Of a stretch of 64,000 bases of DNA, positions 30,901 through 64,000 are shown piece by piece. This stretch comes from Crambe crambe (Eukaryota > Porifera > Demospongiae > Poecilosclerida > Crambeidae): positions 806,001 to 870,000 of the forward strand of contig OZ004583.1 in assembly GCA_963924555.1 (NCBI GenBank). The letters run 5' to 3'. A program made the translations under genes and the position numbers. Position 1 is the stretch's first letter, and every line of letters begins with the position of its first letter. The notes beneath the pieces are model-generated. The model made no database searches. It saw only the letters and a list, made by a program, of their open reading frames with translations, and was not told where the DNA came from.

Positions 30901-33900
30901 AAATATACGTGGCAGATTATGGTAATAACCGTATTCAAGTTTTGAACTCTGACCTCACCTATTCCTGCACTTTTGGTGAGAAGGGCAGTGGCAAGGGACA
31001 ATTTTATTCCCCACGTGGCGTATCTTGTGATAGCTCTGGTAACGTGTATGTGGCTGATACTTTAAACCATCGCATTCAAGTTTTCACTGCACAAGGGAAG
31101 TATGCGAGGATGTTTGGGCAACATGGTGGTGGCGGGGAGCTTGATAAACTGACTGGTATTGCTGTTGATGCTAATGGTGTCGTGTATGTCAGCGAGTATG
31201 ACAATCATCGCATCTCCTTGTTCACCTCCAAGGGTCAATTTTTAATGTCATTTGATGATGAGGTGGTGGGACCAAAAGGTCCTATTGGACTGTCAATAGA
31301 CATCAATGGTGTATTGTATGTATGTGACCACAGTAATAATTGTGTTCAGTTATTCTAAATGTGAAGACAGTCGTGCATTTAGGTCATTATCATGTTGTTG
31401 TTGTTGTTGTTGTTATTGTTATGTGTTACTTTATAATAAAGAGAGAGTTGTATTACCAACAACAAAAAAAGTACTTTCTTAGTCATATGAATGACCTTAG
31501 TTTCCACTATGTCAATGAGCAGTGGCAGTGCTCTAAGTGTAACCAACTGGGACTCACTTTTCAAAGGTCACGTGGTGCACGTGCAGGTGATCCAGTTAAC
31601 GTAACAGTATTACTCTAAACCTGGCAACATCTTGAAGGCACTAACACGTGCAGCACTATGAAGTTTTTGACTACAACTTGTTGTTAAACACTCTGTATGT
31701 TCCTTGTTTAAATCAGGAACTTGCTATTCTCTGTCACAATGTGACTTCAATGGCTTTGTGGGTGAACATGTTGATCATCTTTACTTCCTAATATGGGAAT
31801 GCATGTGATTAGTGAGTCAAAAAATGTCTGAAGAAACTATCAAGAAGCTTGAAGAGCAGCTCCAGTGTGCCATCTGCCTTGATACCTATACTGACCCTAA
31901 ACTACTCCAGTGCTTCCATGTCTTCTGTAGAGATTGTCTGGTGCGACTGGTGGTCCGAGACCAGCAGGGACAACTCTCCCTGACTTGCCCCAACTGTCGT
32001 CATGCCACACCCATTCCAGCCAATGGAGTGACAGGCCTCCAGTCAGCATTTCACATCAACCCCCTCCAAGAAGCTTTAGAAGAACTAAAGAAGCCCAAAG
32101 ATATAGAAACCAGTCAAGAGGTAATGAAAGGTGATGTGATATGCCCCAATCCTTCAAAGAAAGTCTCTCCTTACTGCTCTGTTCATGCCAATAAAGAACT
32201 GGAGCTGTACTGTGAGACATGTGGGGAGCTGATCTGCTCTCACTGTGCACTCCGAGGCCAGAAACATCACAGCCATGAGTACGACTTGATCAGCTCATGT
32301 TATGAGAAGTACAAGAGAGAGATGACCCCATCACTGGAGCCAGTGGAGAAGCAACTCACAACTATCAAGACGGCATTGGCACATTTGGATGAGCATTGTG
32401 GGGAGATATCTGACCAGCAAGCAGCTATTGAAGCAAATATACATCGCACCACCCAACGACTCCATGAAATCATTGACATCAGAAAGACTGAGTTGATAAA
32501 CCAGCTGCACCAAAAGACTATGGAGAAGCTGAAAGGCCTTGCAGTCCAGAGAGACGAGTTGGAGACCATTCTGGCCAAGTTGAGCAGCTGTCTTGAGTTT
32601 GTGAGAGAGAGCCTGGAGACAAGTAATCAGGGAGAAGTGATGAAGATGAAGACGACCATAATCAAGCAAGTGAAGGAACTGACTGTTACATTCCAACCAG
32701 ATGTAGTAAAGCCTAACACAGAAGCTGACATAGAGTTCATAGCTTCAAGTGATATCATTGCTATGTATCAGAACTATGGGCAAATTCGTGTACCAGGAAG
32801 TCCAGACCCCTCACAATGCCATACAACAGGTAAATGTGTGGAGGTAGCTGTGGTTGGAGAGGAATCTACTGTTGTCGTACAAGCTAACGACTTCAAGGGT
32901 GAATCTTATTCAAAGCAAGTGACATTGCAATGTGAGCTTGTGTCTGAACTAACAGGTGCCGTGGTGAGAGGCAACGTAAGGAGAAGAGGAGAGAGCCAGT
33001 ATGAGATCAGCTACCAACCTACCATCAAGGGGAGGCATCAGCTACACATCAAAATCGAGGACCAGCACATCAGAGGAAGCCCATTTCCTGTGACAGTAAA
33101 GATGCCTGTTGAGAAACTGGATACTCCAATACGAAGTATCGATGGAGTCAGCCGTCCATGGAGAATCGCTATCAACAAGTCGGGGGAAATGGTGGTATCA
33201 GAGGGTCACGGTCATTGTATATCGATTTTCAATCTCATGGGTAAGAAGCTTCTAACATTTGGCACACATGGCTCTGATCGGGGACAATTCATTAGACCTT
33301 TCGGTGTGGCAGTAGATGGTGAGGGATGTATTTTAGTGACTGATGTTAGCAATCATCGAATTCAGAAGTTCACAGCAAATGGCAAGTTTCTTTCATCAGT
33401 AGGTACTTGGGATAGTCAACTGTTCACGCAACCCGGTAGCATTGGGCTTAATGACATCAATAGCAAGGTATATGTCGCAGATTTCCGATCTCATCTTGTC
33501 CAAGTTTTGAACTCTGACCTCTCCTATTCTAGCACTTTAGGGAAGCTAGGCAGTGGTAAGGGTCAGTTTAACACTCCATGTGGAGTATCTTGTGACAGCT
33601 CTGGGAATATCTATGTCACCGATAGCGGGAATCATCGTATTCAAGTCTTCACATCCAAGGGGAAGTTTGTGAGGATGTTTGGGCGACGTGGTGATGGTAA
33701 GGGTGAGCTCGAATGGCCTCATAGTACTGCCGTTGATGATGTGAACAGATGCGTGTACGTCAGCGAGAGTGGGAACCATCGCATCTCTGTGTTTACTTCC
33801 GATGGTCAGTTTGTGACGTCTTTTGGCTGCAGAGGGAAAAAATCGGGACAGTTTAATCATCCTCGCGGAATAGCAGTGGACAGTAGTGTATGTGTGCGAC

Positions 33901-36900
33901 ACGGACAATTATCGTATTCAGTTATTTTAGTCTGCGTATACTTTTATAATGATGTATGAAGCACAGTTAATGTATGTATTATTATCAATCATTACTGGAC
34001 CCCTAAAGCTGTCGAAAGAGTTTATAAAGTGAATCTCTTGTAGCGCTTCACAACGCGACTTTATCACACTTGGTGAAATATTGGGTGGGGACTGTCTATG
34101 TACGTAACTGCAAAGTATATATGACAAAAAATATCTTTCCCTCCTCCAGATCTCAGAAGAGAATATCTCAAATGACTTTGTAATCAGAGATCTTACTGCT
34201 GAATGTCAAGGGGTAAGTCCAAATTTCAGGTGTGCATTTCATGTCTAAGGAACTGATCGTGTCAATTTTCTGTGTGTGTCTCTCTCTTTTTTTTTTCTTT
34301 TTTTTTTTTTTTTTTTGTAGGAGACGCAATCGATCCGTCAGTACCACTACAATGCCTGGCCGGACCACGGCAAGCCTGATTCCCCGGACCCCATCCTCCG
34401 CATGTTAGAGATGATCACTGACTATAGGAAGATGAAAGAAGTCCCAATTGTCATTCATTGCAGGTGGGCGTGGTCAAGAGTATTAGTGTGTGATCTGGTA
34501 AAGGATCATCACTATGATGGGGTATGTGTTTCTTATTTCTTACCCAGTGCTGGCTGTGGAAGAACGGGGACTCTCATTGGCATTGATGTTGCCAAAACCA
34601 TGCTCTTAGCCAAGGTGAGATGTAGTTCAGCATGTTTACAGGTGATTATTCACCTCCTCCCCTCTACCCTCCTCCCTCCCCTCCACCCTCCTCTCTGCCC
34701 TCCTCCTCCCCTCCACCCTCCTCCCTCCCTCTCCCCTTTCCCCTCCTCCTCCCCCTCCTCTCTCCCTTAGAATGTCTCCCCAGACTTTTCCGTATACAAG
34801 ATCGTCGAGAAGATGCGTCAACAGAGACCAGCCATGGTGCAGGCAAAGGAGCAGTACATGTTTGTGTACATGGCCATAGCAGAACTGGCTCGGAGGTCAA
34901 TAGGTCTGAACCCCACTGTCCCTCCTAAACCACCCAGTGTAAGTCAAGTCACCCATGTGTGCACGTTATGAACAGGCAGCAGAACTAAAAATAAGAAATC
35001 TACTTTAATTGGTCATAACCATTAGTCGGACACACACATGAAAACTTCATGCAACTATATACCTTAGTAGGAATGGTGGGTCAAAGGTCATAAGATTGTA
35101 TAAAAATCAAAACTCTGTTCTCTTGTCTATCTTTATAAACATAGGAATAAATCCAAATTGAAACAGAATCTTGAATTTCTGTCATCCATTTACAATACAT
35201 GTTAAGTCTTTGCTCCCTTGGCATGTATTATATTATCCTATGCTATATAGTGTTGTAGCAGGTCCATGATAAACAATTAGTCTTAAAACCGTATGCTGTC
35301 TGAGTCTTATGAGAAAGGGCAGCTGTTTCTGTTTGCCTAAACTGAAACAATCACTGAAAGTGGGATTATTTCTCATGACATAAACCCATCGTTTACAATA
35401 TACTGGTCGGGTCATAGTACACAGTACTATAGACTGTTTGGAGAGAAGTACTACTTTTAAGTGTGCTTGCTTGATTTTAGCTTATCTGTACTTGAAATTG
35501 TATCATCATCTTTCTTTTATCCTTTTCTCTTCTCCCCAGAAACCTACTCCTGCCCCAACTGGAAAGGTATGTGCATGCATATCCTAGTTAGGCCAGCAAA
35601 TTGTTTGCCTTCCATGCATGGGTAGCTAGTCTGTGCATTTGGCACTGTGTGAACCTCTTGCTTACCTATTTCAGACAAGCAAGTCCTTGCACTAGCTCTC
35701 ACAAGTTATTATGTGGCTAGAGATCATGTTATTAAGGAAGGGGGTTCCACTTCTTTGTAATTGGATTTTCAAAGTGATGCATTCTATGTAGATGTGGTTA
35801 TGCATTTCCTGTGCATGTGGGTGGTGTGGATGTTGATGCATAGAAGACCAAAAGAGCTGGGCTTCCTCAGGATTTCCAGTTATATTTACGAATGAAACAG
35901 GCATTATCATCATCACAGCCCTTAGAAGAAGAAGAAGCAGTTCATAGAAGTTATAGCACTACAGTATCTCTACGAGTCGGTAGCTAGAGCTCTAAGTAGA
36001 TAGACACCAGTGAAAATAGACAAACTCCCGTTATTTGCTACTGCAAAAAAAAAAAAGCTAGTGAGTGGTTGGACATAATGTGCTCCCCTCCCCCAGGCCT
36101 CAAATTGATTACAGTTATGGATTGATAATGAAAGGGTTGTCCCCATAACTATATACTTGACCTCTCTTTTCCTTGCAGTCTTATATGAATGTGGATACAA
36201 ATGCACCTAATGCTCGCAGTCGTAGCCCCACCCCTTCCTCCATCCACAGTAGCTCCCCTCCTGCTCCACTAGAACCTGCAGACTCGGACAAAGTTAAAAT
36301 CACCTACGAAAATATTGACAATATCAACCAACCTCCTTCACAACAACAACCCCACGGCAAATCCGACGTCCCTGAGGTAATTGAAAGTAACGAGATGGCG
36401 GCAGTTAAAGTACCGCCAGCGGTAGGAAAGCGGCCTATGGCTAAACAGAGGAGTAACCCAAACTCTCTTGCTGGTCCACCGGTTCCTCCGGAGAAGAAAT
36501 TGAAGGAGGATGAGAATAAGCAACCATCACCCAAACCGCGTGCTCGCAGGAGCCGGAATGAGAATGGTGGTGCATCAAATGCTGTTCCAGTACCAACACC
36601 TGCAGTGACCACTCGAATCACCCCTCCTCCCCCTGTAACAAATCGTCCTTCCGTCCCCTCAAAGCCGAAATCTGTGCCTTTGGTGGACTCAAATGGACAA
36701 AAACCGCTCCCTCGGTCTAAGACTCCAACAGAGTTGCTAGCTCAACGACCTCTACCCTCCACTCCAGAGAGCCCTCCAAACTCTGCCCTGAGGAACAGTG
36801 TCTCCCCTGTTCACTCCCCATCTCATAAAGTTGCGTCCAAACCCACAGTGCCGGCACCTCAGAATAAGCCCCTCCCTCCCAAGCCCCCTGCCCCATCCAT

Positions 36901-48374: not shown

Positions 48375-48489
48375 AAGTCTGTTAAACCATAAATAAAAGT
48401 TCGAAGGTCAGGTATACCATAAATCACTATTGCGCATGCGTACGAAATTAGTTCCCACCCGTACCCGCCACGGATCGGATAGGTTCGCC
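48375..48489. promoter_or_regulatory. 115-bp divergent promoter, CRBN / AIG1 copy 1
   Basis: It carries an NRF-1-like TGCGCATGCG at 48431-48440. The two start codons face away from each other across this interval, so a shared promoter is likely. Related sequence lies before AIG1 copies 2 and 3. Confidence 0.65.
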
Positions 48490-50242
48490 ATGGACTTCAT
48501 CTTAGTGGCAGCAATGCTTTTCAGCGTCGCTGAGCTCACTGAAGACAGATGTATGTGTACCTAGGTGTAGAGCCATGACCAGTAACAGTTGACAGGCCTG
48601 GAGGATAGTCTGGCGGCGCCGACCCTTAAGAAAAAGGAGGTAAAGGGTCGGCGCCGCCAGACTATCTTAGAAGCAATTTTTGATTGGTCAGGTCAGGTCA
48701 TTTATGACAATATATTGTGTGTGCAAAGTGCGTCATCTAGGGGGGTCTGGGAAAACTTTGATCTGGTTTATGTGGAGAATCAGGAATGTCTGGTAGAGTA
48801 CACAGCTGGATCAGGTGACCATTGCAGATGTTTGTGGGTTACAGTGGATTGCAGGTTGCTTGACACAGTACTTCAGTCAGCAAGGTCACATGGACCAATC
48901 AGATTCATGCTGACATCATTGCCTGCAAGTCTGATTGGTCCATGTGACCTCGGTGGCTAACGTACTAGTGTCAAGCAACCTGCAATCCACTGTATGTGAT
49001 ATATTTTCCACAACATCATAATTTGCACCTCCAATTAACATGGGAATGCCATTATTATATCACGCATGCCACAATTATTGGTCTGGCCAATGCCTGACCT
49101 GCCTGATCGCCCTGATAATTCTGTGTTGAGTGTTAGGGCCCAAGTGTTAATCGATTTCCTTGGGGATTCCATAGCTTTTTATCTTAATAATAGGTGCTGG
49201 TGAAAGTTGCAGCAGCTCAGATATGGGTGATGATGAAAACTTGGTAGCAATGTTTCGTCAAGGTTGCCCCTGGCAATTCTCCGATGTCAAATGTGCACTG
49301 AAATTGATGGACAAGATAGAATCGTGGTTGAAGAAACATAACAATTTTCAAGTCTTAATCACTGGAAAGATGGGAACTGGTAAGACTACACTTATCAAAG
49401 GACTGAAGGAGAAGTACATCCCTGAAGCAGATAATCTTCTGCCACATACTGTAAAAGTTACACCTTATGAATACGAGCATGAAAAGATCAAATTCACATT
49501 CATTGATACACCTGGATTGAGAGAATCAAGTGATTCTCACAAGGATTACGAATATCTAAAAGAGATGGTCAAAAAAAATGAAAGACCCGATTTGATCATC
49601 TTCACTATCAAAATGGATGATACTCGACTTCGTCCAGAAGATGAGGCAACTATCAAAAACGTATCTGATGCATTTGGTTGGAGTGTATGGAAAAATGCAA
49701 TGTTTCTCCTCACATTTGCCAATAAAGTATCCAAAGTAGGTTCCCCCCCAGGTAGCAGGGAAAATAAAGTTTACTTCAACAGGCAACGTGATGAATTCTC
49801 CCTTCTTATCACCAAAGAATTGCGGAAGAATAGAGTGCAACCAGAAGTAGCAGACAGCATACCAGTTATTCCAGCAGGACTTGTCATGCAACCTTCTATT
49901 CCATCGGATTCGAGGGGGATATCTTGGGTGGATGAATTCTGGAAGGAGATGTTCAAAGTTTTGAAGGCATCTAGGTATGATTCCAGTGCAAGTGACAAGG
50001 AAGAAGAGAATTCATCTACCTCAACACCATCAAGTCCAACTCCAAAAAAAACACCAGTTCCGACTCCAACTCGACAATCGCCAGCACCAACTTCTATTCC
50101 AAAATCTTCTCCCAACTTGGCTCACTCCACAGTGATCACCTTACCGAAAAAATCTAAACGATCATCAGCACCAACTTCTAACTTAGCTCACCCCATAGCA
50201 GGTTCATTAATGTGGGTACTGTGGCAAGTTTTGCTTTTTTAA
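48490..50242 (+). CDS. AIG1-type GTPase with signal peptide and C-terminal hydrophobic segment, copy 1
   Basis: Exon 1 (48490-48550) encodes MDFILVAAMLFSVAELTEDR, a signal peptide. It splices with matching phase to 49194-50242. The total of 1110 bases is an exact multiple of three (369 residues). The GTPase domain has the P-loop GKMGTGKTTLIKG, G3 DTPGL, the box IKMDDTRLRPEDEATIKN and LTFANKV in the G4 place. This resembles AIG1/Toc34-like septin-related GTPases (GIMAP group in vertebrates). After FWKEMFKVLKASRYDS comes a Ser/Thr/Pro stalk (TPSSPTPKKTPVPTPTRQ), then AGSLMWVLWQVLLF at the end, a short hydrophobic tail. A signal peptide plus stalk plus tail suggests an extracytosolic GTPase domain. 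A second ATG at 49223 would give a cytosolic form. Confidence 0.85.
48605..48665. repeat. perfect 23-bp hairpin in AIG1 copy 1 intron
   Basis: The arms ATAGTCTGGCGGCGCCGACC(CTT) and the exact inverse flank a 15-base loop. It is the smallest member of a foldback family that includes 38118-38470. Confidence 0.93.
48842..48992. mobile_element. 151-bp foldback MITE with TA duplications
   Basis: The ends CAGTGGATTGCAGGTTGCTT and its inverse, with GTCACATGGACCAATCAGA and TCTGATTGGTCCATGTGAC nearer the centre. TA flanks both sides. It lies in the first intron of AIG1 copy 1. Confidence 0.9.
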
Positions 50243-50399
50243 CAAAACAGAATTATGATAGCTAGCTAGTTTCAGTCAGTGTATGCAGCTTTTGTCAGAT
50301 TATAGTATTAAAATTGTTTTCTACAATGTCTATGTGGCATTTGAGTGCTTTAACCACAGCAGGTCTTTTACTGTCACTTGCTTTAGAAATCATAATTAT

Positions 50400-50820
50400 A
50401 CTTGGATAAGTAACATCCAGCTTTCTTCATTCTCAACAGTTGTGGCTTAGAATTGTGACCAGCTGGAATAGACGAAGCTCCTGCACTGGTTCAGGAACAT
50501 TTTCTACTAGCTAGTACTTCACGTGTTCTATTTTCCCATTCTTTGAGTCTTTTCCTTATTGTAATCACCTTTTTGACATATCTTCTGATGATCTGATATT
50601 CATTCAAAAAGGAGACTTTATTTCCACATGTATGTTTTTGAAACTAGTCTGTATCTTCCAGCCTGATCCAACTTTTATGGTGCATATCACTAAATCTACC
50701 ATGCATGTGATTTTCATTTGTTAGTTCGTTCAAGTAATTCATTGCCTTATTCATCAGGTTATTTATATACTTGGTATGCGGTTGGCCCTTTCTTTTGATA
50801 CATTTCCTCATAGCATTTAG
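50400..50820 (-). pseudogene. decayed antisense AIG1 GTPase fragment (paired with 52880-53345)
   Basis: This block is a diverged copy of the one at 52880-53345, where the minus strand still encodes GTPase-like sequence. Here the frame is broken by deletions around 50620. Confidence 0.6.
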
Positions 50821-50849
50821 GGGCTAGGCTAGCTATGTATCACTTCTCT

Positions 50850-50975
50850 CATGAAGCCCTCCCCTCCCCCTGGCTGGAAGGAAGATATCAAATTCGGTCT
50901 TCTTTTTCTTCCACCAGCTCTGTGAAGACTCATTTCCTGACTGAAAAGCAGAATGTGCATACGTACTTGCTACAT
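50850..50975 (-). pseudogene. CRBN exon 2 fragment upstream of AIG1 copy 2
   Basis: The minus strand encodes SGNESSQSWWKKKKTEFDIF followed by LPA. This matches the CRBN exon 2 end (SSQSWWKKKKKKKTKFDISL). It is on the strand and side expected if the CRBN/AIG1 head-to-head unit was duplicated. Other CRBN exons are missing. Confidence 0.85.
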
Positions 50976-50982
50976 TGTATAC

Positions 50983-50994
50983 TGCGCATGCGCA
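50983..50994. promoter_or_regulatory. NRF-1-like palindrome, AIG1 copy 2 promoter
   Basis: TGCGCATGCGCA lies 75 bp before the ATG at 51069. The same motif and flank precede copy 3. Confidence 0.5.
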
Positions 50995-51068
50995 TGAGAT
51001 TCTAGGGCGGATCGGAGCGGATACCGCGTACCTGTGGGCGTAATCAGACGAGATTAAAACTATACACC

Positions 51069-52751
51069 ATGGGATCGGGAATGGTGGGCTTCTTTCTAGT
51101 AGCGGCATCGTTATTCAGCATCGCTGAATTTCACAGTTGTAAGTGTTCCTATGAGTACTGTTAGGTTACCCAATATTCTCTTAATGTTCTTTTGTTTGTT
51201 TTGAATTAGCTTCAATTAATATTCAATTAGCAGTCTCATTTAATAATAGGTGAAAGTGAAAGTTGCAGCTCAGATATGGGTGATGATAGGTTAGTAGCAA
51301 TGTTTCGTCAAGGTTGCCCCTGGCAAATCTCCGATGTTAAATGTGCGCTGAAAATGGTGGACAAGATTGAATCATGGTTGAAGAAACATAACAATTTCAG
51401 AGTCCTAATCACTGGAAAGATGGGAACTGGTAAAACTACTCTTATTAAAGGACTGAAGGAAAAGTATGTCCCTGAAGCAGATAATCTTACGCCACATACT
51501 GTAAAAGTTACACCTTATGAATATGAGCATGAAAAGATCAACTTCACATTCTTTGATACACCTGGATTGAGAGAATCAAGTGATTCTCACAAGGATTATA
51601 AATATCTAAAAGAGATGGTCAAAAAAAATGAAAGACCCGATTTGATCATCTTCACTATCAAAATGGATGATACTCGACTTCGTCCAGAAGATGAGGCAAC
51701 TATCAAAAACGTATCTGATGCATTTGGTTGGAGTGTATGGAAAAAATGCATTGTTTCTCCTCACATTTGCCAATAAAGTATCCAAAGTAGGTTCCCCCCA
51801 GGTAGCAGGGAAAATAAAGTTTACTTCAACAAGCAACGTGATGAATTCTCCCTTCTTATCACCAAAGAATTGCGGAAGAATAGAGTGCAACCAGAAGTAG
51901 CAGACAGCATACCAGTTATTCCAGCAGGACTTGTCATGCAACCTTTTATTCCATCGGATTCGAGGGGGTGGATGAGTTCTGGCAGGAGATGTTCAGAGTT
52001 TTGAAGGCATCTAGTACAATTATTGACCAGAAAGAAGAGAAATCATCCACCCCAACACCATCAAGTCCAACTACACGAGCCACTATGAAAAAATCAACAA
52101 AATCGCCAGCACCAACTCCAAAATCTTCTCCCAAAGCCCACCCCATGCCCACTTGTCATCAGCCTGAACTCGGTGTGAAAGTTACCAAAGAATTGCGGAA
52201 GAATAGAGTCCAGCCAGAAGTAGCAGACAGTATACCAATTATTCCAGCAGGACTTGTCATGCAACCTTCTATTCCATCAGATTCGAGGGGGTGGATGAAT
52301 TCTGGCAGGAGATGTTCAAAGTTTTGAAGGCATCTAAGTACGATTCCAGAGCAGCCAGACTCTCTGAACTCCAACAATACATAGTGGACTCTGGAGACAG
52401 CCAGGTCAGCAGCAGACAAGAAGTCCAAAGGATTACTCTGGGAGGATGGACTGTTATACCAAATGTGGATCTCAGTGAAGGTGCAGCTCACCAAGCAGTA
52501 CGTGGAATAGCAGCCGGCCTTGCATACGAGGCTATGCATGGAATTGACAAGGAAGAAGAGAAGTCATTTACCTCAACACTATCAAGTCCAACCCCAACAA
52601 AACCAACTCCAAAAAAAACACCAGTTCCAACTCCAACTCAGAAAAAATCTAAGCGATCGCTAGCACCAACTTAGCTCACCCCATAGCAGGTTCAGTGATC
52701 ACCTTACTGATAATAACATTAATGTGGGTGCTGTGGCAAGTTTTGCTTTAG
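51069..52751 (+). pseudogene. AIG1-type GTPase copy 2, frame-broken, with internal duplication
   Basis: Exon 1 (51069-51138, MGSGMVGFFLVAASLFSIAE) splices in phase to 51250. The GTPase domain is open through GWSVWKK. One extra A (six instead of five) near 51745 shifts the frame, and one missing C in a C-run near 51800 restores it. A 10-base loss after SDSRG (near 51968) shifts it again. The segment from KELRKNRVQPEVADS through the lost site is then repeated at 52180-52330, so duplication followed the deletion. A further unique piece (QEVQRITLGGWTVIPNVDLS) and the stalk follow. A 7-base loss near 52670 puts a stop before the hydrophobic end, whose sequence (SVITLLIITLMWVLWQVLL) survives out of frame. 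Homopolymer changes could be assembly errors; the 10- and 7-base losses are less likely to be. Confidence 0.8.
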
Positions 52752-52879
52752 CACAGCAGAATTATGATAGCTATAGCTAGTTTCAGTCAGTGTATGCAGC
52801 TTTTTTAGCTCACAAAACAAAATTAATGTCAGATTATAATTCTTTTTAGCATTAAAATTGTTTTCTACAGTGTCTATGT

Positions 52880-53345
52880 GGGGTCTTTTACTGTCACTTG
52901 CTTTAAAAATCATATACTTGGATAAGTAACATCCAGCTTTCTTCATTCTCAACAGTTGTGGCTTAGAATTGTGACCAGCTGGAATAGACGAAGCTCCTCT
53001 TGCACTGCTTCAGGAATATTTCAACTAGTACTTCACGTGTTCTATTTTCCCATTCTTTGAGTCTTTTCCTTGTAATCACCTTTTTGACATATCTTCTGAT
53101 GATCTGATATTCATTCAAAAAGGCGACTTTATTTGCAAAGGTAAGCACAAATATTCTATGTTTCTGCTGAATGTTTTTGAAACTAGTCTGTATCTTCCAG
53201 CCTGATCCAACTTTTATGGTGCATATCACTAAATCTACCATGCACATGATTTTCATTGGTTAGTTCATTCAAGTAATTCATCACTTTATTCATCAGGTTA
53301 TTTATATACTTGGTATGCAGTTGGCCCTTTCTTTTGATACATTTT
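52880..53345 (-). pseudogene. antisense AIG1-like GTPase fragment
   Basis: The minus strand reads VDLVICTIKVGSGWK, then RIFVLTFANKVAFLNEYQI, RKRLKEWENRTREVLVEIF and VYSSWSQF. DLVICTIKV and LTFANKV match DLIIFTIKM and LTFANKV of the AIG1 copies. The P-loop half is missing. The piece lies between copies 2 and 3 and points opposite to them, so the ancestral cluster probably had another GTPase gene in the other direction. Confidence 0.72.
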
Positions 53346-53419
53346 CTCATAGCATTTAGGGCTAGGGGCTAGGGCTAGCTATGTACCACTTCTCTCATGA
53401 ATCCTCCCCCTCCCCCTTA

Positions 53420-53610
53420 ACTTACTTGCTGGAAGGGGGGTATCAAATTTAGTCTTCTTTTTCTTCTTCTTCCACCAGCTCTGTGAAGACTCATGACTGA
53501 GAAGCATCATTCACTATATCTTCAGAATGTGCGTGCTCCTCTTCATCAGAATTACTGGACTCTTCAGAGATTAACTCTTCATGCTCGAGTAAAGGACCAC
53601 TGATTTTGTC
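53420..53610 (-). pseudogene. CRBN exon 1-2 fragment, second duplicate
   Basis: The sequence on the minus strand matches the acidic CRBN exons (ESSNSDEEEHAHSEDI, SSQS-like and LLEHEE-like parts) with stops and frame breaks. It marks the 5' side of a third CRBN/AIG1 unit. Confidence 0.75.
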
Positions 53611-54209
53611 ACACTTATTTCATTGTATAAGGTAAGTCAGGAATACTTTTTCGGGAAAATGGTTCTTACTTCTGATTGGGAACAGATAGAAACATGTAAA
53701 GTGCAGATGAAAGTTGAATCTTTTCTCTAACTAGCAGTGAAAGTTTCATAGATTAAATATTGTGGATAATTTATTATAGAGCCAAGAATAAAGGCACTCA
53801 AAAATTGGTGGGTTGGGGTAATTCCGAATGATTGTTGTGGCCACACAAAGCATAAAGCTGCTTAGCCTTACAACTTGCTTTTCAAAACTTCATCCCTAGT
53901 GCCACTTTCAGAGGGCTAGATCAATCGCTCATCATTGTCTGATTCTGCTGACAATCTCCAGTAAGTTTTAGGAAGTTCAAAATCAAGGGGCATTATTTAG
54001 AGGTAGCTAGCCTCAGTGCACAAGAAGCTTGATCTTCAAGAGTTGTTGCAAAGATAGAGCAATAGGAGTAGTTTATGTGTATCACGTTTGAGCTTGAAAC
54101 TCCTCTTCCTTTTGAAGTAACCTCGGTTCAGAATTACTTACCTTACTTTTTTTCTTTTTTTTTGTCCCACAATTTTATAATGGAATTCGATTATACTCAG
54201 ACAAACAAA
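53611..54209. other. unassigned interval
   Basis: AT-rich; I see no gene. It may hold the 3' flank of the retrotransposon insertion. Confidence 0.35.
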
Positions 54210-55956
54210 CAAGTCCAAGTCATGGCACTCCGTCTAGAGAGGGGGGGAGAGTTGGGAGGCGATGTAGCCATAAACAGGCGTTGCCACGCCACAGGGCGAT
54301 GGCTAGTTGTCCAAAGAGGTGCTTGGAAGAGTTAGAGGAATCTGTAGTACCCACTCTGTCTGCAATGGCCTTGCCAATGGAGCGAACAGTTTGAATTGTG
54401 TCATCAGCAAGGCCACCTAACGTTTCTGCTACCAGAGGAATGAAGTGCAAGCCGGCAAGCTGATAAAGAGGATGCTAGCTTGCGCACCTGAAGGGCATGG
54501 CCCGGGGTGAAGGAGGCTTCATTTAGAGTCTGCTGCTGCAGGGGGCTGATTACATGGACATCCAGAGCTGCAGGATGGCCCCCTTTCCAATTGGGTAGAA
54601 GGATGTCAGCTGGGCGAGAGAGGGAGCTGGCAAGGAGGCCAGGGGTCTCCTTGGAAGGGGCCAAGGCTGCAGAGAAGACCATGTCACGTATCATTATGCC
54701 GGGAAATGCAGTCACCATTTCCACTACACCCAACCTGGTGATCACCAAAGATGTCAGCAGTGTCCCGGCATTCTGGGCAAGGAAGTGGATTACTTTGGAG
54801 AGGAATTCCCAGCCAGTACCGCAGGCAGCATTGGAATTCTCTGTCTTGAAGGTGAAGACCCAGTGATGCCACATTAAGCCAGTCCCCTGCATGAGGCAGA
54901 CTTGAAGAGTATGCCAGAGCTCGTGAGCGAATGGTGGGGGCAGAAGAGAGTAAGTTCTGGAAGGAGGCCTCATCAATGCTGTGGGAAAGAGAGCGTTGCC
55001 GTAGAGGGACATTGATATCATCAATATTTTGCCAGCTGCTGTGGTGGCAAGGGCCCTTACGACAGGGATGGTGTGAAGTGTGGAGCTAGGCGGGTGACCA
55101 AGGATGCACTCCACCAGATGCTTGGAGGCTGTGCTAGAGGCCAAAAAAGCAGCTGGAGCATGTAGTGAGGCACTGCGAAGATTAAGGCCACCATGACTGC
55201 TGGGGAGGCTTGCCTTAAGCCATGACCAATTGGACAAAGGACCACCCACGATGATTCCAGGGTGTCACGGATGGCTTGGTTGAAATCACACGAGGATTGC
55301 TGTATATGGCTGGGAGGACAGGCTCGGAGGACAAAAGAGACCTTGGGGAGTGCGAGACAGGAACGTAAGAGAGTAATCTCTGCTTGGGAGTCACCTAAGT
55401 CTCGCAGAGCACCCAGGGAAGTCCTCACTTTTGTCAGCCTAGCCTGAAAGATTTCCTCACAGAAATCAGGTGGTCCAATGGGGCAGCCAAGGAGGGAGAA
55501 GCCCCGTTGTGTGATGGGAATGTCGGCTGGTAGTGGAGATTGTGCTTCCTTGGGAATGAAGAGAAGAGACTTTCCTCTATTAAGGTGGAGGCCCAAGAGG
55601 GGGCCCTCTCTCTCAACGATTTGGAGGGCAGCAGCCAGGTCCTCAGGGTGACCCATAAGGGTGCTGTCATCGAGGTACCAAGCATTGAGGGAGAGGCCAG
55701 GGACTTCATCCCTGATCTTCTCTATCAGAGGGTGGAGAGATAAGGCGAACCCCAATGGACCTAGGGGGTCCCCTTGCTGCACACCACAGGAGCCATGAAG
55801 AGGAAAGGTTGGCAGGAATAGCATGCTTCAATCCAGGCAGAAAGGGTGGGGATGCGGTTACGAGTCTCCACAAACATGGCCTCCTGGTTAATGCAGTTGA
55901 AGGCGTTACTGAAGTCAAGGAGGAGCGTCCATCGATGACTTGGGAGGGAGGAGGAC
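54210..55956 (-). mobile_element. 5'-truncated non-LTR retrotransposon with reverse transcriptase
   Basis: Minus-strand frames carry RT motifs in order: LLLDFSNAFNCIN, GVQQGDPLGPLGFAL, YLDDSTLMGH and LNRGKSLLF. A zinc-binding CPEC...GDHQVGCSGNGDCISRHN, RPADILLPNW...ALDVHVISPL and a final VAETLGG...LFGQLAIALWRGNA follow. This order is typical of a widespread invertebrate RT family. The frame changes at least three times (near 55800, 55060-55250, 54870 and 54430), so it is dead. The sequence starts inside the RT domain at 55956, exactly where homology to the AIG1 promoter begins. That is the 5' truncation expected of target-primed integration. Confidence 0.88.
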
Positions 55957-55968
55957 TGCGCATGCGCA
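55957..55968. promoter_or_regulatory. NRF-1-like palindrome, AIG1 copy 3 promoter
   Basis: TGCGCATGCGCA lies 70 bp before the ATG at 56038. The retrotransposon ends one base before it. Confidence 0.5.
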
Positions 55969-56037
55969 TGAGATTCTAGGGCGGATCGTTGGGAGGGCGT
56001 AATCAGACGAAGATTCAAATTCAAAGAACTATACACC

Positions 56038-57247
56038 ATGGAAATGGTGGGCTTCTTTCTAGTAGCGGCATCGTTATTCAGCATCGCTGATTTTCAAATT
56101 CATGACAGTTGTAAGTGTTCCTATGTGTAGGTGTTAAGTACACTGTTGTTTTGAAGTAGCTTTCTATTCAATTAATATTCAATTAGCAGTCTCATTAATA
56201 ATAGGTGATAGTGAAAGTTGCAGCTCAGATATGGATGATGATAAGTTGGTAGCTATGTTTCGTCAAGGCTGCCACTGGCAAATCTCTGATGTCAAATGTG
56301 CGCTGAAAACGGTGGACAAGATCGAATCGTGGTTGAAGAAACATAACAATTTCAGAGTCCTAATCACTGGCAAGATGGGAACTGGTAAAACTACTCTTAT
56401 TAAAGGACTGAAGGAAAAGTATGTCCCTGAAGCAGATAATCTTATGCCACATACTATAAAAGTTACACCTTATGAATACGAGCATGGAAAGATTAACTTC
56501 ACATTCTTTGACACACCTGGATTGAGAGAATCGAGCGATTCTCACAAGGATTACAAATATCTAAAAGAGATGGTTAAAAAAAATGAAAGACCCGATTTGA
56601 TCATCTTCACTATCAAAATGGATGATACTCGACTTCGTCCAGAAGATGAGGCAACTATCAAGAACATATCTGATGCATTTGGTTGGAGTGTATGGAAAAA
56701 TGCAATGTTTCTCCTCACATTTGCCAATAAAGTATCCAAAGTAGGTTCCCCCCCAGGTAGCAGGGAAAATAAAGTTTACTTCAACAAGAAACATGATGAT
56801 TTCTCCCTTCTAATAACCAAAGAATTGGAGAAGAATAGAGTCCAGCCAGAAGTAGCAAACAATATACCAATTATTCCAGCAGGACTTATCATGCAACCTT
56901 CTATTCCATCGGATTCGAGGGGGATATCTTGGGTGGATGAATTCTGGCAGGAGATGTTCAAAGTTTTGAAGGCATCTAGGCATGATTCCAGTACAATTAT
57001 TGAAGAGAAATCATCCACCCCAACACCATCAAGTCCAACTACACGAGCCACTCTGAAAAAATCACCAACACCAACTCCAAAATCTTCTCCCAAAGCCCAC
57101 CCCATGCCCACTTGTCATCAGCCTAAACTTGGTGTGAAAGGGAAAATTTTAGCAGTGATCTCCTATCTGATAGTGGGATTAATGTGCTGGTGTTGCGGCA
57201 GGTTTTGCTGTACTAGGCGCGCCATAGTAAAAGAAAAGTTTTTTTAA
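56038..57247 (+). CDS. AIG1-type GTPase with signal peptide and C-terminal transmembrane segment, copy 3
   Basis: Exon 1 (56038-56110) encodes MEMVGFFLVAASLFSIADFQ, a signal peptide. Exon 2 is 56205-57247. Together they make 1116 bases in frame (371 residues). GTPase motifs are as in copy 1: GKMGTGKTTLIKG, DTPGL, KMDDTRLRPEDEATIKN and LTFANKV. The stalk is Ser/Thr/Pro-rich (TPTPSSPTTRATLKKSPTPT). A strong membrane segment (ILAVISYLIVGLMCW) follows, then a Cys-rich basic tail (CCGRFCCTRR) that stops transfer and could be palmitoylated. By the positive-inside rule this gives a type I protein with the GTPase outside the cytosol. This is the best intact copy. A start at 56231 (MDDDKLVAMF) would instead give a cytosolic, tail-anchored form. 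Confidence 0.87.
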
Positions 57248-60848: not shown

Positions 60849-61144
60849 CTGCGGTTTTAGGAAATCTTGGAACACGAGAAAGTGCGCATGCTCAAGCGCA
60901 TGTTCAAGCACATTGGTAACTAAGGCTCCAGATCGTTTCTCTGCTTACAATGGTCAGTATTCACAGCTGTGAACCAGGTAGGAGAAGCCTTATAGTAAGG
61001 ATATACATTGGAGAATAACTAACACCCGTCCTAACTGAGCCATCGTCGATTGTTTTGGTAACTATGCACAACTGCGCATGCGCTCACTACGGTTTAATGT
61101 TTACTGCCGGCCGTCTTTTGTTCCAAGATTCCCTAAAACCGCAG
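60849..61144. mobile_element. 296-bp MITE with CTGCGGTTTTAGG ends
   Basis: The left end CTGCGGTTTTAGGAAATCTT(GGAAC) and right end (GTTCC)AAGATTCCCTAAAACCGCAG are inverted copies flanked by TA. The interior has an NRF-1-like TGCGCATGCGCT at 61073-61084. It lies just upstream of the transposase-like gene. Confidence 0.82.
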
Positions 61145-61178
61145 TATATCTATGCTGCTATGCATGCATGATGCCTTC

Positions 61179-61190
61179 TGCGCATGCGCA
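61179..61190. promoter_or_regulatory. NRF-1-like palindrome before the transposase-like gene
   Basis: TGCGCATGCGCA lies 38 bp before the ATG at 61229. Confidence 0.45.
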
Positions 61191-61228: not shown

Positions 61229-64000
61229 ATGGAATTAAGTTTGGTATGTAAGAAGTGTCCTCTGTGTAATTTCGAATCTCCGACTATACCTTTGCTGTTG
61301 AGCCACCTTCGAAGTGTGCATGCAAGTGATCCCCGGTTTCTCGTGACGTGCGGTATTGAGGGCTGCACTGTATCTTCTAAGAGTTTCTCTTCCTTCTCTT
61401 TATTCCCATATATACCGTCGTCATTCGAATGTGGGCATTGTTAAAAAAAGAATTTTTCAATTACAACCTGATGATCAGAGTTCAAGTGAACTGAATCCTA
61501 GTTATTTCTCAGCTTCTTTGAATGATGAAGGCTCAGATGAAGGTATCTAGCTACATGCATGCATGGAACTATTTTAGCAGCCCTTAGTCCAACTAGAAGA
61601 GCTGCTATTTATGACAGTGTACCTGTAAACTGGATATTTTGCTAATCAGGCCACTATTGTTCTCAGGGGATTCTTCATTAGGTGTGGGTGGGCAAAAAGC
61701 TAATCATTCCTATTGAGTCCTTAGCTTTTTAGCAAGTAAACTTACTGACTACACTGAGATTTAACTACATCTGTCTATGACGGCAGCAATTTTCCAGGGT
61801 ATAAGAGTTTGTGAGCATCATAATAATAAAAATGTGGGGTATGGGAAGTGGAACTATATAAGCTAGAGCATAGTGGCCTTAGTAAAGATTTATAGCATTA
61901 TCAGCATGTTAAACAACTTAATCACCAAGATTTCTGAAATGCAGAGGTTATGGATGTTGATGTTGCTCATGCATTGGGTAGAGATGTGCAAACTCGGTGT
62001 CGTGCAAGCGCACTGTTTCTTCTCAAGCTGAAAGAGCATAGACGCATAACTCAAACTGCCATCGATGATGTAGTGGAAGGCTGCCAAAGCCTTTTTCAGC
62101 AGACAATTCAGACAGTTCAAGCCGGCGTCCGTTCCTGTTTAGCTGAGAATGGAGTTGATCCAGATAATGTAGCTGGATTAAGCGAGACATTTTCCAAGCT
62201 TGTAACGGCCTTGACAATAAATACAAGCAGGAAAAGTATTACAAAGAAAATCTTGGATTGGTGGTAAGCAACCAACTATACTATATCATAAGCAGTCCCA
62301 TTATTCCAAATTAATTTTTGTGTACAGGAACCAAATGAGGTGAAGATTGGTGATCGCTACTATGTTAAAAAGTTTACAGGATCCAAATCACAATTGAAAG
62401 AACAGTATGACACTTTCCAATATATTCCTTTATTAAGTACTCTAAAGAGGCTGCTATGTGATAACAGTATTCTTGATGAAATAGAGAACTGTCCTAATCG
62501 CATTCATAGTGATAATATAATTGAAGATTTTTGTGATGGAACCTTGTTTCATGAGCACCCTCTATTTTCCAAAGATCCTTATGCCTTACAAATCATAGCC
62601 TATTATGATGAAGTGGAAATGTGCAATCCTTTGGGATCACATATTAAAAAGCATAAGTTGGGCATTGTTTTTTTTACTTTGGGTAATATCCACCCAAAAT
62701 TCCGCTCTTCTTTGTGTGTTATTAACCTGCTACTAGTTGCTACGATACCAGTGATCGAACGTCATGGTATCGATAAGATTTTACAGCCTTTTATTACTGA
62801 TCTTGATGTTTTGGCAACCACTGGTGTGACCATGCCTATAAAAGGAAGTGAGCGTACCTTTAAAGGTGCCCTGCTGGTCTTTTTAGCTGATAATCTAGCT
62901 AGCAATTTTCTTGGTGGATTTAAATTATCTTTTTCATTCTCTTTTCGGTGTTGTCGATCCTGTCTTGTTACAAATGATAAGCTTTCTAGCAGTTTTTTTT
63001 CTGATAAATTTGTTCGAAGAAGCAAAGAAAAGCATGAAGATCATTGTAAGGCATTGGAAGGTCCTCTAGGTAACCACTATTCTAAAACTTATGGTATAAA
63101 TAGAAGATCTTGTCTTATGGATGTTCCATACTTTTCTATGCTTGGTGGTGGTTTACCACATGATGTCATGCATGACATATTGGAAGGTATTGCTCCTTTG
63201 GAAATTAAATTATTGCTACGGTATTGTATTGAAAAAAAATTCATAACTTTAGATGAATACAATAAAAGATTGATTAATTTTTCATATGGTTATGCAGAAT
63301 ATGATAAGCCAATTCCCATTCTTACTCGTGTTCTTAATGGAGATGGTAGTCTTCGCTCGAACGCAGCTCAAATACTTTTATTATCACATATATTACCATT
63401 TATTATTGGACGTATAATTCCAGAAGATGACGAGCACTGGAGATGTTTCTTGCTTCTACTGCAAATTATTGATATTGTTATGTGTCCAGTAACTTCAGAA
63501 TCTGTGAGCACAAGTCTTAAATTTCTTATCAATGAGCACCATTGCTTATTCATGTTACTATATAATAAAGAAATACCTAAATTGCATTTTGTTGTACACT
63601 ATCCAGAGCAAATGGAAGCAGTGGGTCCAATGACTAAATCATGGACTATGAGGCACGAGGCAAAACTCAACTTTTTTTAACAGGTTACCAGATTAGATAA
63701 CTTTAAAAATATTGCATCATCCATGGCAAATCGGCATCAGCGTTGGATTTGTTACGAGTTATCCAGTGGAAGCCTTCTTTCTAAACCTATTGAATGTGGA
63801 CCAGGAGTTGGTCCTAAGCAGTTTTGTGATGAGACCCCTGACATTCAGGGAGGTTTAAGTAGCTTGATGGAGATATCTCCTGAATCTTCTATTTTTCATC
63901 CTCGTTGGGTACGTAAAGATGGCATAATGTATAAAGACAATATATTCTTAGTTACTGGTTCCGATGGTTTGGATCCAGTCTTTGCACAACTTGATGAATT
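61229..64000 (+). pseudogene. CACTA/EnSpm-like transposase-related gene, frame-broken, 3' partial
   Basis: Exon 1 (61229-61542) has C2H2 zinc fingers (CPLCNFESPTIPLLLSHLRSVH, CGIEGCTVSSKSF). The second finger continues (SHIYRRHSNVGIVKK) one frame over, so there is a break near 61395. Exon 2 is 61945-62263 (EVMDVDVAHALGRDVQTR). Its end should read YKQEKYYKENLGLV in a shifted frame and joins EPNEVKIGDRYYVKKF in exon 3 (62328 on). Exon 3 contains DVPYFSMLGGGLPHDVMHDI, LEGIAPLEIKLLL, HYPEQMEAVGP and MRHEAKLNFF. A TAA near 63678 then replaces an expected Lys codon, after which the same frame stays open to the window end. Domain order matches the HD-LEG/MRxEAK proteins related to CACTA transposases in fish and invertebrates. 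It could be a transposon relic or a domesticated gene. Confidence 0.62.

What the first reader, a model, noticed from the sequence alone, without database searches (positions are those of the whole stretch)
48490..57247. AIG1-type GTPases predicted to sit outside the cytosol: signal peptide, GTPase, mucin-like stalk, membrane tail
Three + strand copies each have a separate first exon encoding a hydrophobic signal peptide (FILVAAMLFSVAE; GFFLVAASLFSIAE twice). Each joins the GTPase exon with the same phase (T|GT, giving Cys). In copies 1 and 3 the joined length is an exact multiple of three. A Ser/Thr/Pro stalk and a C-terminal hydrophobic segment follow; copy 3 ends with a Cys/Arg tail that fits the cytosolic side. 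Known GIMAP/AIG1 and Toc GTPases work in the cytosol. An ecto- or ER-lumenal GTPase in an expanding array next to other innate-type genes would be new. The topology is inferred. The ATG at the start of exon 2 offers a cytosolic alternative form, so promoter choice could switch location.
Basis: partly seen in the sequence, partly recalled or inferred. Interest (0 to 1): 0.9.

Follow-up and report, generated by a model that had tools for sequence, protein, structure and literature searches.

The report
AIG1 GTPases with a secretion signal
A small gene array in an animal genome, probably a sponge's, seems to have taken GTP-binding immune-type proteins that normally work inside the cell and equipped them to work outside it or inside membrane compartments, which would be new for this family but still needs RNA and protein evidence.

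Summary
Three AIG1-type genes each have a separate first exon (48490-48550, 51069-51138, 56038-56110) encoding a short hydrophobic leader, joined in phase 1 to the GTPase exon. Counting copies outside the window, 7 of 8 carry it; the eighth lost it at a duplication breakpoint. All seven first exons keep length 1 mod 3, a good donor and a purine at -3. An NRF-1-like palindrome lies about 50-75 bp before the first exon in all three window copies and not between exons 1 and 2. The scan that finds the leader in 5 of 7 copies finds one in 2 of 43 other AIG1 loci. Other traits agree with a non-cytosolic domain: no cysteine in the GTPase domain of the four copies scored (others 1-7, one exception), a gained N-glycosylation site, a Ser/Thr/Pro stalk (copies 1 and 3) and copy 3's Cys/Arg tail. 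Corrections: copy 2 is frame-broken, copy 3 reads SIAD, copy 1's tail is weak, and one duplicate pair lacks the exon-2 ATG, so a start-site switch is not a family trait. No transcript or topology data exist; nucleotide use and function are inferred.

The parts
48431..48440 (+). NRF-1-like palindrome TGCGCATGCG, copy 1 promoter, 49 bp between it and the exon-1 ATG
   Evidence: 8 matches (5 places) in the window, 0.03 expected; Nrf-1 motifs are enriched near Amphimedon transcription starts (PMC4773876, passages)
48490..48550 (+). copy 1 exon 1: leader MDFILVAAMLFSVAELTEDR, ends in phase 1
   Evidence: donor GTATGT
48551..49193 (+). copy 1 intron 1, with fold-back elements
49194..50242 (+). copy 1 exon 2: N-terminal Cys region, AIG1-type GTPase domain, Ser/Thr/Pro stalk, short weak hydrophobic C-terminus
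50983..50994 (.). NRF-1-like palindrome (both strands), copy 2 promoter
51069..51138 (+). copy 2 exon 1: leader MGSGMVGFFLVAASLFSIAEFHS, phase 1
   Evidence: donor GTAAGT
51250..51776 (+). copy 2 exon 2 up to the first stop after the frame break; later pieces to about 52750 lie in other frames and are rearranged (broken copy)
55957..55968 (.). NRF-1-like palindrome (both strands), copy 3 promoter, at the edge of a reverse-transcriptase-like fragment
56038..56110 (+). copy 3 exon 1: leader MEMVGFFLVAASLFSIADFQIHDS, phase 1
   Evidence: donor GTAAGT
56111..56204 (+). copy 3 intron 1 (94 bp)
56205..57247 (+). copy 3 exon 2: N-terminal Cys region, AIG1-type GTPase domain with sequons NFT and NIS, Ser/Thr/Pro stalk, transmembrane segment, Cys/Arg tail

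Best explanation
The array encodes AIG1/GIMAP-type P-loop proteins that gained a promoter-proximal first exon with a signal peptide. The leader takes the chain into the ER (inferred) and is cut near SIA|E or SVA|E (inferred). The GTPase domain therefore folds on the lumenal or outer side, with its only cysteines in a short N-terminal region (C-x4-C ... C-x8-C), an N-glycan at N-[VI]-[ST], and in copies 1 and 3 an O-glycosylated Ser/Thr/Pro stalk. A C-terminal transmembrane segment holds it, with a short Cys/Arg cytosolic tail in copy 3. Shown at sequence level: the exon, its conservation, its phase, the domain, the sequons, the cysteine pattern, the tails. Not shown: transcription, cleavage, topology, glycosylation, nucleotide binding. 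The role I think likeliest is a cell-surface or endo-lysosomal defence-type protein that binds a nucleotide and oligomerises on the non-cytosolic face, as cytosolic relatives do on the other face (the latter recalled). That last step is a guess, about 0.2.
For: Exon 1 precedes 7 of 8 copies (6 distinct sequences); lengths 61, 70, 73, 67, 70, 67, 73 are all 1 mod 3. Donors are GTATGT, GTAAGT or GTACGT, and -3 of the ATG is a purine, in 7 of 7. Between the two exon-1 subtypes pS is 0.38-0.67 and pN 0.20-0.31; over all 15 pairs pN/pS is 0.57. An NRF-1-like motif lies just upstream in 3 of 3 window copies, none between exons 1 and 2. L009/L012 lack the exon-2 ATG but stay open for 322 aa including the tail. 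Leader scan: 5 of 7 exon-1-bearing copies against 2 of 43 other AIG1 loci. GTPase-domain cysteines: 0 in the four copies scored; among 43 other loci only L046 has 0, and 40 unique others have 1-7. Sequon at the second site: 4 of 4, against 1 of 41 other aligned rows (L060); at the first site 3 of 4, against 0 of 41. Ser/Thr/Pro in the best 40 residues after the domain: 0.70 (copy 1) and 0.62 (copy 3), against at most 0.42 in 38 others.
Against: No RNA, cDNA, proteomic or topology data; SignalP and DeepTMHMM were not available. Leader scores are moderate: 2.97-4.79 on a von Heijne matrix recalled from memory (column sums checked), against 6.85-10.36 for three secreted proteins; L009/L012 fall below the threshold, which I set at the leaders' own level; the best-scoring site in copy 1 and L010 is two residues past the expected one. 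The n-region is acidic or neutral in 5 of 6 distinct leaders. Within subtypes changes are mostly non-synonymous (copy 1 against L010: 0 synonymous, 8 non-synonymous). Chance alone would keep frame and hydrophobicity in 16-22% of the deep pairs. The copies are one clade, so cysteine loss, sequons and stalk are each one evolutionary observation (cysteines for the clade alone p = 0.046). L009 has three N-terminal cysteines, an odd number; its stalk is short (0.40); L010 ends before any tail; copy 1 lacks the first sequon. Copies 2 and L013 are frame-broken.
Confidence: 0.7

Rival explanations
1. Cytosolic tail-anchored GIMAP-like GTPases: translation starts at the exon-2 ATG, exon 1 is a 5' untranslated or minor form, and the C-terminal hydrophobic segment anchors the protein from the cytosolic side.
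For: In 28 of 40 other AIG1 loci with a located G1, the first Met of the frame lies 21-60 residues before it, and many end in a hydrophobic stretch; the exon-2 ATG sits about where those start, in a fair context (G at -3, G at +4). GIMAP1/3/5 are anchored by a C-terminal hydrophobic domain (PMC8201404, passages).
Against: The exon-2 ATG is absent in L009/L012. Exon 1 keeps frame, phase and a good ATG context in 7 of 7 copies. The NRF-1-like motif is before exon 1 only in the window copies. A cytosolic protein explains neither the cysteine-free domain nor the sequons and stalk.
Confidence: 0.17
2. Exon 1 is translated, but the leader is not cleaved and only acts as a weak N-terminal membrane-binding segment, leaving the GTPase domain in the cytosol.
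For: Moderate leader scores and acidic n-regions.
Against: The hydrophobic run is about 12 residues, short for a stable membrane span, and small residues stand at -3 and -1 of the expected site (SIA, SVA). Sequons and cysteine pattern disagree.
Confidence: 0.08
3. The array is a decaying cluster in which exon 1 survives by recent duplication, gene conversion and chance; most copies are not functional proteins.
For: Copy 2 and L013 are frame-broken, L010 lacks a tail, L011 lost exon 1. L009/L012 and L010/L011 are near-identical inverted duplicates. The neutral simulation is not strongly violated.
Against: Five of 7 exon-1-bearing copies are open past the GTPase domain, 4 of these to a hydrophobic end. 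pN/pS of the first 440 nt of exon 2 is 0.28 over 15 pairs; exon 1 differs at up to 67% of synonymous sites between subtypes without a frame loss.
Confidence: 0.05

Closest known systems
Vertebrate GIMAP1/3/5 (C-terminally anchored AIG1 GTPases)
   Same: AIG1-type GTPase domain with a C-terminal hydrophobic segment; immune-associated family (PMC8201404, passages).
   Different: The review's main text has no hit for 'signal peptide'; the members listed are on intracellular organelles or cytosolic. Here a leader exon, sequons, stalk and a cysteine-free domain point to the opposite side of the membrane.
Biomphalaria glabrata AIG family (91 genes by PMC10075465, passages)
   Same: Large expanded AIG1 family, some with transmembrane segments; some models put an AIG1 domain on the outside (PMC7053062, passages).
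Toc34 and other Toc GTPases
   Same: Best sequence matches among solved structures for the copy 3 exon-2 protein: the top eight rows, E 1.3e-10 to 9.5e-5 (T7I23.11 rows are Arabidopsis Toc33, recalled).
   Different: Chloroplast outer-membrane receptors whose GTPase faces the cytosol, without signal peptide or mucin-like stalk (recalled).
Secreted GBP-1
   Same: Immune GTPase found outside cells; called the first GTPase described to be secreted by eukaryotic cells (PMC5571548, abstract).
   Different: Different family; leaves by a non-classical, caspase-dependent route, and the main secreted form lacks most of the GTPase domain.

Membership tests
AIG1/GIMAP (PF04548) | Profile match above the curated cut-off | tested here: met
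   36.3, 32.3 and 41.3 bits for copies 1, 3 and L009 against 27; MMR_HSR1 scores higher (45.1-48.9 bits)
AIG1/GIMAP (PF04548) | G1 P-loop GxxxxGK[ST] and G3 DxxG | tested here: met
   GKMGTGKT and DTPG in all four copies aligned
AIG1/GIMAP (PF04548) | G4 ending in Asp (NKxD/RxxD type; motif recalled) | tested here: not met
   ANKVSK in all four; of 41 other aligned rows only L033 and L035 have NKVD. This does not set the clade apart from its paralogues but leaves guanine specificity open
AIG1/GIMAP (PF04548) | Conserved box/IAN motif and coiled coil | not tested
   no coiled-coil tool used; motifs not searched. So 'AIG1-domain protein' is claimed, 'GIMAP' in the strict sense is not
AIG1/GIMAP (PF04548) | GTPase domain on the cytosolic side | tested here: inconclusive
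   sequence signals predict the opposite; no experiment
Type I membrane protein with cleaved signal peptide | N-terminal hydrophobic core followed by small residues at -3 and -1 | tested here: met
   hydrophobic run, then SVA or SIA, in 6 of 6 distinct leaders; 5 of 6 reach 4.2 on the recalled matrix, L009 2.97
Type I membrane protein with cleaved signal peptide | Positively charged n-region | tested here: not met
   acidic or neutral in 5 of 6 distinct leaders; Lys only in L010
Type I membrane protein with cleaved signal peptide | C-terminal membrane span with positive cytosolic tail | tested here: inconclusive
   copy 3 yes (GRFCCTRRAIVKEK, but three Lys also precede the span); L009/L012 a span with a short CRCCF tail; copy 1 weak; L010 none
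Type I membrane protein with cleaved signal peptide | ER entry, cleavage, glycosylation | not testable with these tools
   needs expression

The most novel reading that the evidence does not exclude
An animal has moved AIG1/GIMAP-type G-proteins across the membrane: a locus of about 80 kb holds G-proteins whose nucleotide-binding domain faces away from the cytosol, in up to three lineages. These are the signal-peptide clade (8 copies, 7 with the leader exon), the L046/870k pair (hydrophobic first exon kept with in-frame indels; cysteine-free domain in L046) and K920 (a membrane span of about 20 residues completed across an intron, then the GTPase domain). They would be nucleotide-driven switches or filaments in the endo-lysosome or on the surface, perhaps sensing nucleotides released by microbes or damage.
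Probability: 0.4. Interest if true: 0.85.

Novelty: new variant of a known kind. Interest (0 to 1): 0.63.

Why it matters
Regulatory G-proteins of this kind are thought of as cytosolic switches because GTP and their partners are there. A classical signal peptide on an AIG1 protein, with matching glycosylation-site and cysteine changes, would show that the family crossed the membrane in one animal lineage. It would make directly testable whether the domain still binds and hydrolyses nucleotide in the secretory pathway. An earlier survey did not detect AIG1 in the sponge Amphimedon (PMC3723955, passages), while a transcriptome study found GIMAP-type genes of the sponge D. avara responding to symbionts (PMC11229196, passages). 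If this genome is a sponge's, an expanded array with outward-facing members would bear on how sponges deal with microbes.

Tried and rejected
Protein homologue search in other animals: switched off, so conservation of exon 1 in other species is untested. Structure prediction of the copy 3 exon-2 protein without an alignment was unusable (mean pLDDT 40.9), so there was no fold search and no test of whether the N-terminal cysteines pair; the second structure job was not used. Neutral simulation of exon 1: too weak to prove selection. My first splice for L046 (phase 1, matrix score 6.21) was dropped after comparison with its decayed neighbour: identity resumes at ATCATGTGCAG, which favours a phase-2 splice with a leader score of only 1.34. 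One origin for the three N-terminally hydrophobic lineages is neither shown nor rejected (p-AU 0.353). The plain comparison of N-termini (24 and 43 loci, none passing both thresholds) is not a fair control because it ignores separate first exons; one search replaces it. GPI anchoring of copy 1, or of copy 2's out-of-frame tail, was considered and not tested.
Full report
What was checked. The window is C5:806001-870000 of a 143-Mb, 119-contig genome. Copy 1: exon 1 48490-48550, exon 2 49194-50242, 369 aa. Copy 2: exon 1 51069-51138, exon 2 from 51250, frame lost at about 51740-51750. Copy 3: exon 1 56038-56110, exon 2 56205-57247, 371 aa. Each exon 1 ends in T and each exon 2 begins with GT, giving Cys at the junction. 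Copy 3 reads SIAD where the finding says SIAE.

Copies outside the window. The genome search with AIG1 listed 96 matches; with the copy 3 protein, 86, of which eight copies on C5 between 855 and 930 kb form one close clade (81-100% identity); apart from pieces of these copies the rest are at most 39% identical. I fetched the five outside copies. Four have exon 1 just upstream (L009, L010, L012, L013). L011 does not: its similarity to its inverted twin L010 begins just after the exon-1 donor. So 7 of 8 copies carry exon 1, in 6 distinct versions (L009 and L012 share one). Exon 1 with promoter DNA found no other place in the genome (5 and 2 places, all in this clade; the tool warns that a missed match does not prove rarity).

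Is exon 1 coding? Lengths are 61, 70, 73, 67, 70, 67 and 73, all 1 mod 3, while intron 1 ranges from 94 to 643 bp. All donors are GTATGT, GTAAGT or GTACGT; all ATGs have a purine at -3. Exon-1 identity between six copies is 69-97%, against 29-60% for the 180 bp upstream. There are two subtypes (copy 1/L010 and the rest). Between them pS is 0.38-0.67 and pN 0.20-0.31; within them there is little sign of amino-acid constraint (copy 1 against L010: 0 synonymous, 8 non-synonymous). A neutral simulation keeps frame and hydrophobicity in 16-22% of the deep pairs, so that test alone is weak. L009/L012 have AGA where the other copies have the exon-2 ATG, yet are open from the exon-1 ATG for 322 aa to a hydrophobic tail; for them exon 1 is the natural start, though a later Met before G1 could serve.

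Promoter. TGCGCATGCG occurs at five places in the window (8 strand matches, 0.03 expected from shuffles): just before exon 1 of copies 1, 2 and 3, and at 61073 and 61179. None lies between exon 1 and exon 2. This is the NRF-1 palindrome (identification recalled); Nrf-1 motifs are enriched close to transcription starts in Amphimedon (PMC4773876, passages). L013 has GCGCATGCGC about 100 bp before exon 1; L009, L010 and L012 show none in the roughly 215 bp printed.

Is it a signal peptide? No SignalP was available. With the von Heijne eukaryotic matrix (recalled; all 15 position columns sum to 161), the six distinct leaders score 4.79, 4.49, 4.34, 2.97, 4.20 and 4.49 (copies 1, 2, 3, L009, L010, L013), three secreted proteins 6.85-10.36 and two cytosolic proteins below 0. 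In one search, 10 of 327 ORFs of 60 aa or more in the loci then held reached 4.2 with an 11-residue hydropathy of 2.4; these thresholds were set at the leaders' own level. The fair control is: one splice-aware scan (ATG exon, listed donors, in-phase acceptor, both thresholds) on each locus. It recovers 5 of 7 exon-1-bearing copies (L009 and L012 fall short), nothing in L011, and 2 of 43 other AIG1 loci, L046 and L072. The 43 are those fetched, not all AIG1 loci of the genome, and a few hold the same gene twice.

Features independent of the leader. In the 200 residues around the GTPase domain the four copies scored (copies 1, 3, L009, L010) have no cysteine. Of 43 other loci only L046 has none; 40 unique others have 1 to 7. 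The clade's other cysteines lie in the short region before the domain (C-x4-C and C-x8-C; L009 has three) and, in copy 3 and L009/L012, in or near the tail. The N-[VI]-[ST] sequon is present in 4 of 4 aligned copies, with Ser and Thr interchanged, and a sequon stands at that column in 1 of 41 other rows (L060); NFT/NLT is in 3 of 4 and 0 of 41. Reading, copy 2, L011 and L013 carry both. The best 40 residues after the domain are 70% Ser/Thr/Pro in copy 1, 62% in copy 3 and 40% in L009, against at most 42% in 38 others; L010 is too short to score. The copies are one clade (100/100 support), so each of these is one evolutionary change, not several; the cysteine result for the clade alone is p = 0.046, and with L046 and K920, which I noticed afterwards, p = 0.0024.

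Tails. Copy 3 ends in a clear span and CWCCGRFCCTRRAIVKEKFF; L009/L012 in a span and CRCCF; copy 1 in a short hydrophobic end; L010 stops before any tail; the tails of copy 2 and L013 lie in other frames.

Domain. The best Pfam matches of copies 1, 3 and L009 are MMR_HSR1 (45-49 bits) and AIG1 (32-41 bits, cut-off 27); the best solved relatives are Toc GTPases. G1 and G3 are intact; G4 reads ANKVSK without the final Asp, as in 39 of 41 other rows (L033 and L035 have NKVD), so guanine specificity is not assured.

Neighbours. L046 (C5:932761-, 31% identical) and its decayed relative at 870 kb share a hydrophobic first exon with indels of 12 and 3 nt; identity falls at the donor and resumes at ATCATGTGCAG, which suggests a phase-2 splice giving MEELKKNEDHIKKFAVLIVIICCKTLDGR (matrix 1.34, hydropathy 2.85). 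K920 (C5:920294-920887, minus) may join an upstream exon of charged repeats ending IIKYLCYFVAILLVLI to LIYVLSH in front of the GTPase domain, a full span across a 469-bp intron; these could also be two genes, and K920 has one cysteine. L046 and K920 group together (100/99); their union with the signal-peptide clade is not rejected (p-AU 0.353).

What is known. In the snail B. [quoted passage not shown] In an Entamoeba study two of four AIG1 transcripts are among the proteins with transmembrane domains but no predicted signal (PMC2823695, passages). I saw no report of an AIG1 protein with a signal peptide in the listings or the passages read; four further searches failed, the library lacks most subscription papers, and one relevant paper on GIMAP distribution was not held.

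Verdict. The exon is real at sequence level and most likely coding. Several traits fit a domain facing away from the cytosol. I put that reading at 0.7. Function, nucleotide and compartment are inferred; transcript and topology data are missing.

Noticed in passing
48604-48666 and 48840-48994: Fold-back elements in copy 1 intron 1 (24-nt arms; 27- and 37-nt arms); the intron of L009/L012 holds a different hairpin-like insert (read by eye).
   Followed up: partly
L009/L010 (C5:883501-899500) and L011/L012 (C5:908501-922500): Inverted duplication of two array members; one breakpoint falls at the exon-1 donor and cost L011 its exon 1. Could be real or an assembly effect.
   Followed up: partly
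51884-52674: Copy 2 carries a second partial copy of its 3' part and an extra stretch (ARLSELQQYIVDSG...GLAYEAMHG) not seen in the translations of the other copies.
   Followed up: no
54404-55824: Minus-strand reverse-transcriptase-like ORFs (identification recalled) that end just before the copy 3 promoter, leaving the NRF-1-like motif and exon 1.
   Followed up: no
61073-61190: Two more NRF-1-like places in front of an uncharacterised + strand gene that may continue to 62292-63680 (transposase-like, recalled).
   Followed up: no
L012 4794-5387 (minus) with upstream exons in L012/L013: K920: AIG1 domain possibly preceded by long Lys/Glu repeats and a membrane span, a candidate type II protein.
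   Followed up: partly
L072 (C1:2838766-2842452): Besides L046 the only other AIG1 locus where the splice-aware scan finds a leader (MYQAFLSLIFLLFL...); may be chance.
   Followed up: no
27261-33959: Three neighbouring ORFs of RING/B-box/NHL type (TRIM-like, names recalled), a second repeated family in the window.
   Followed up: no
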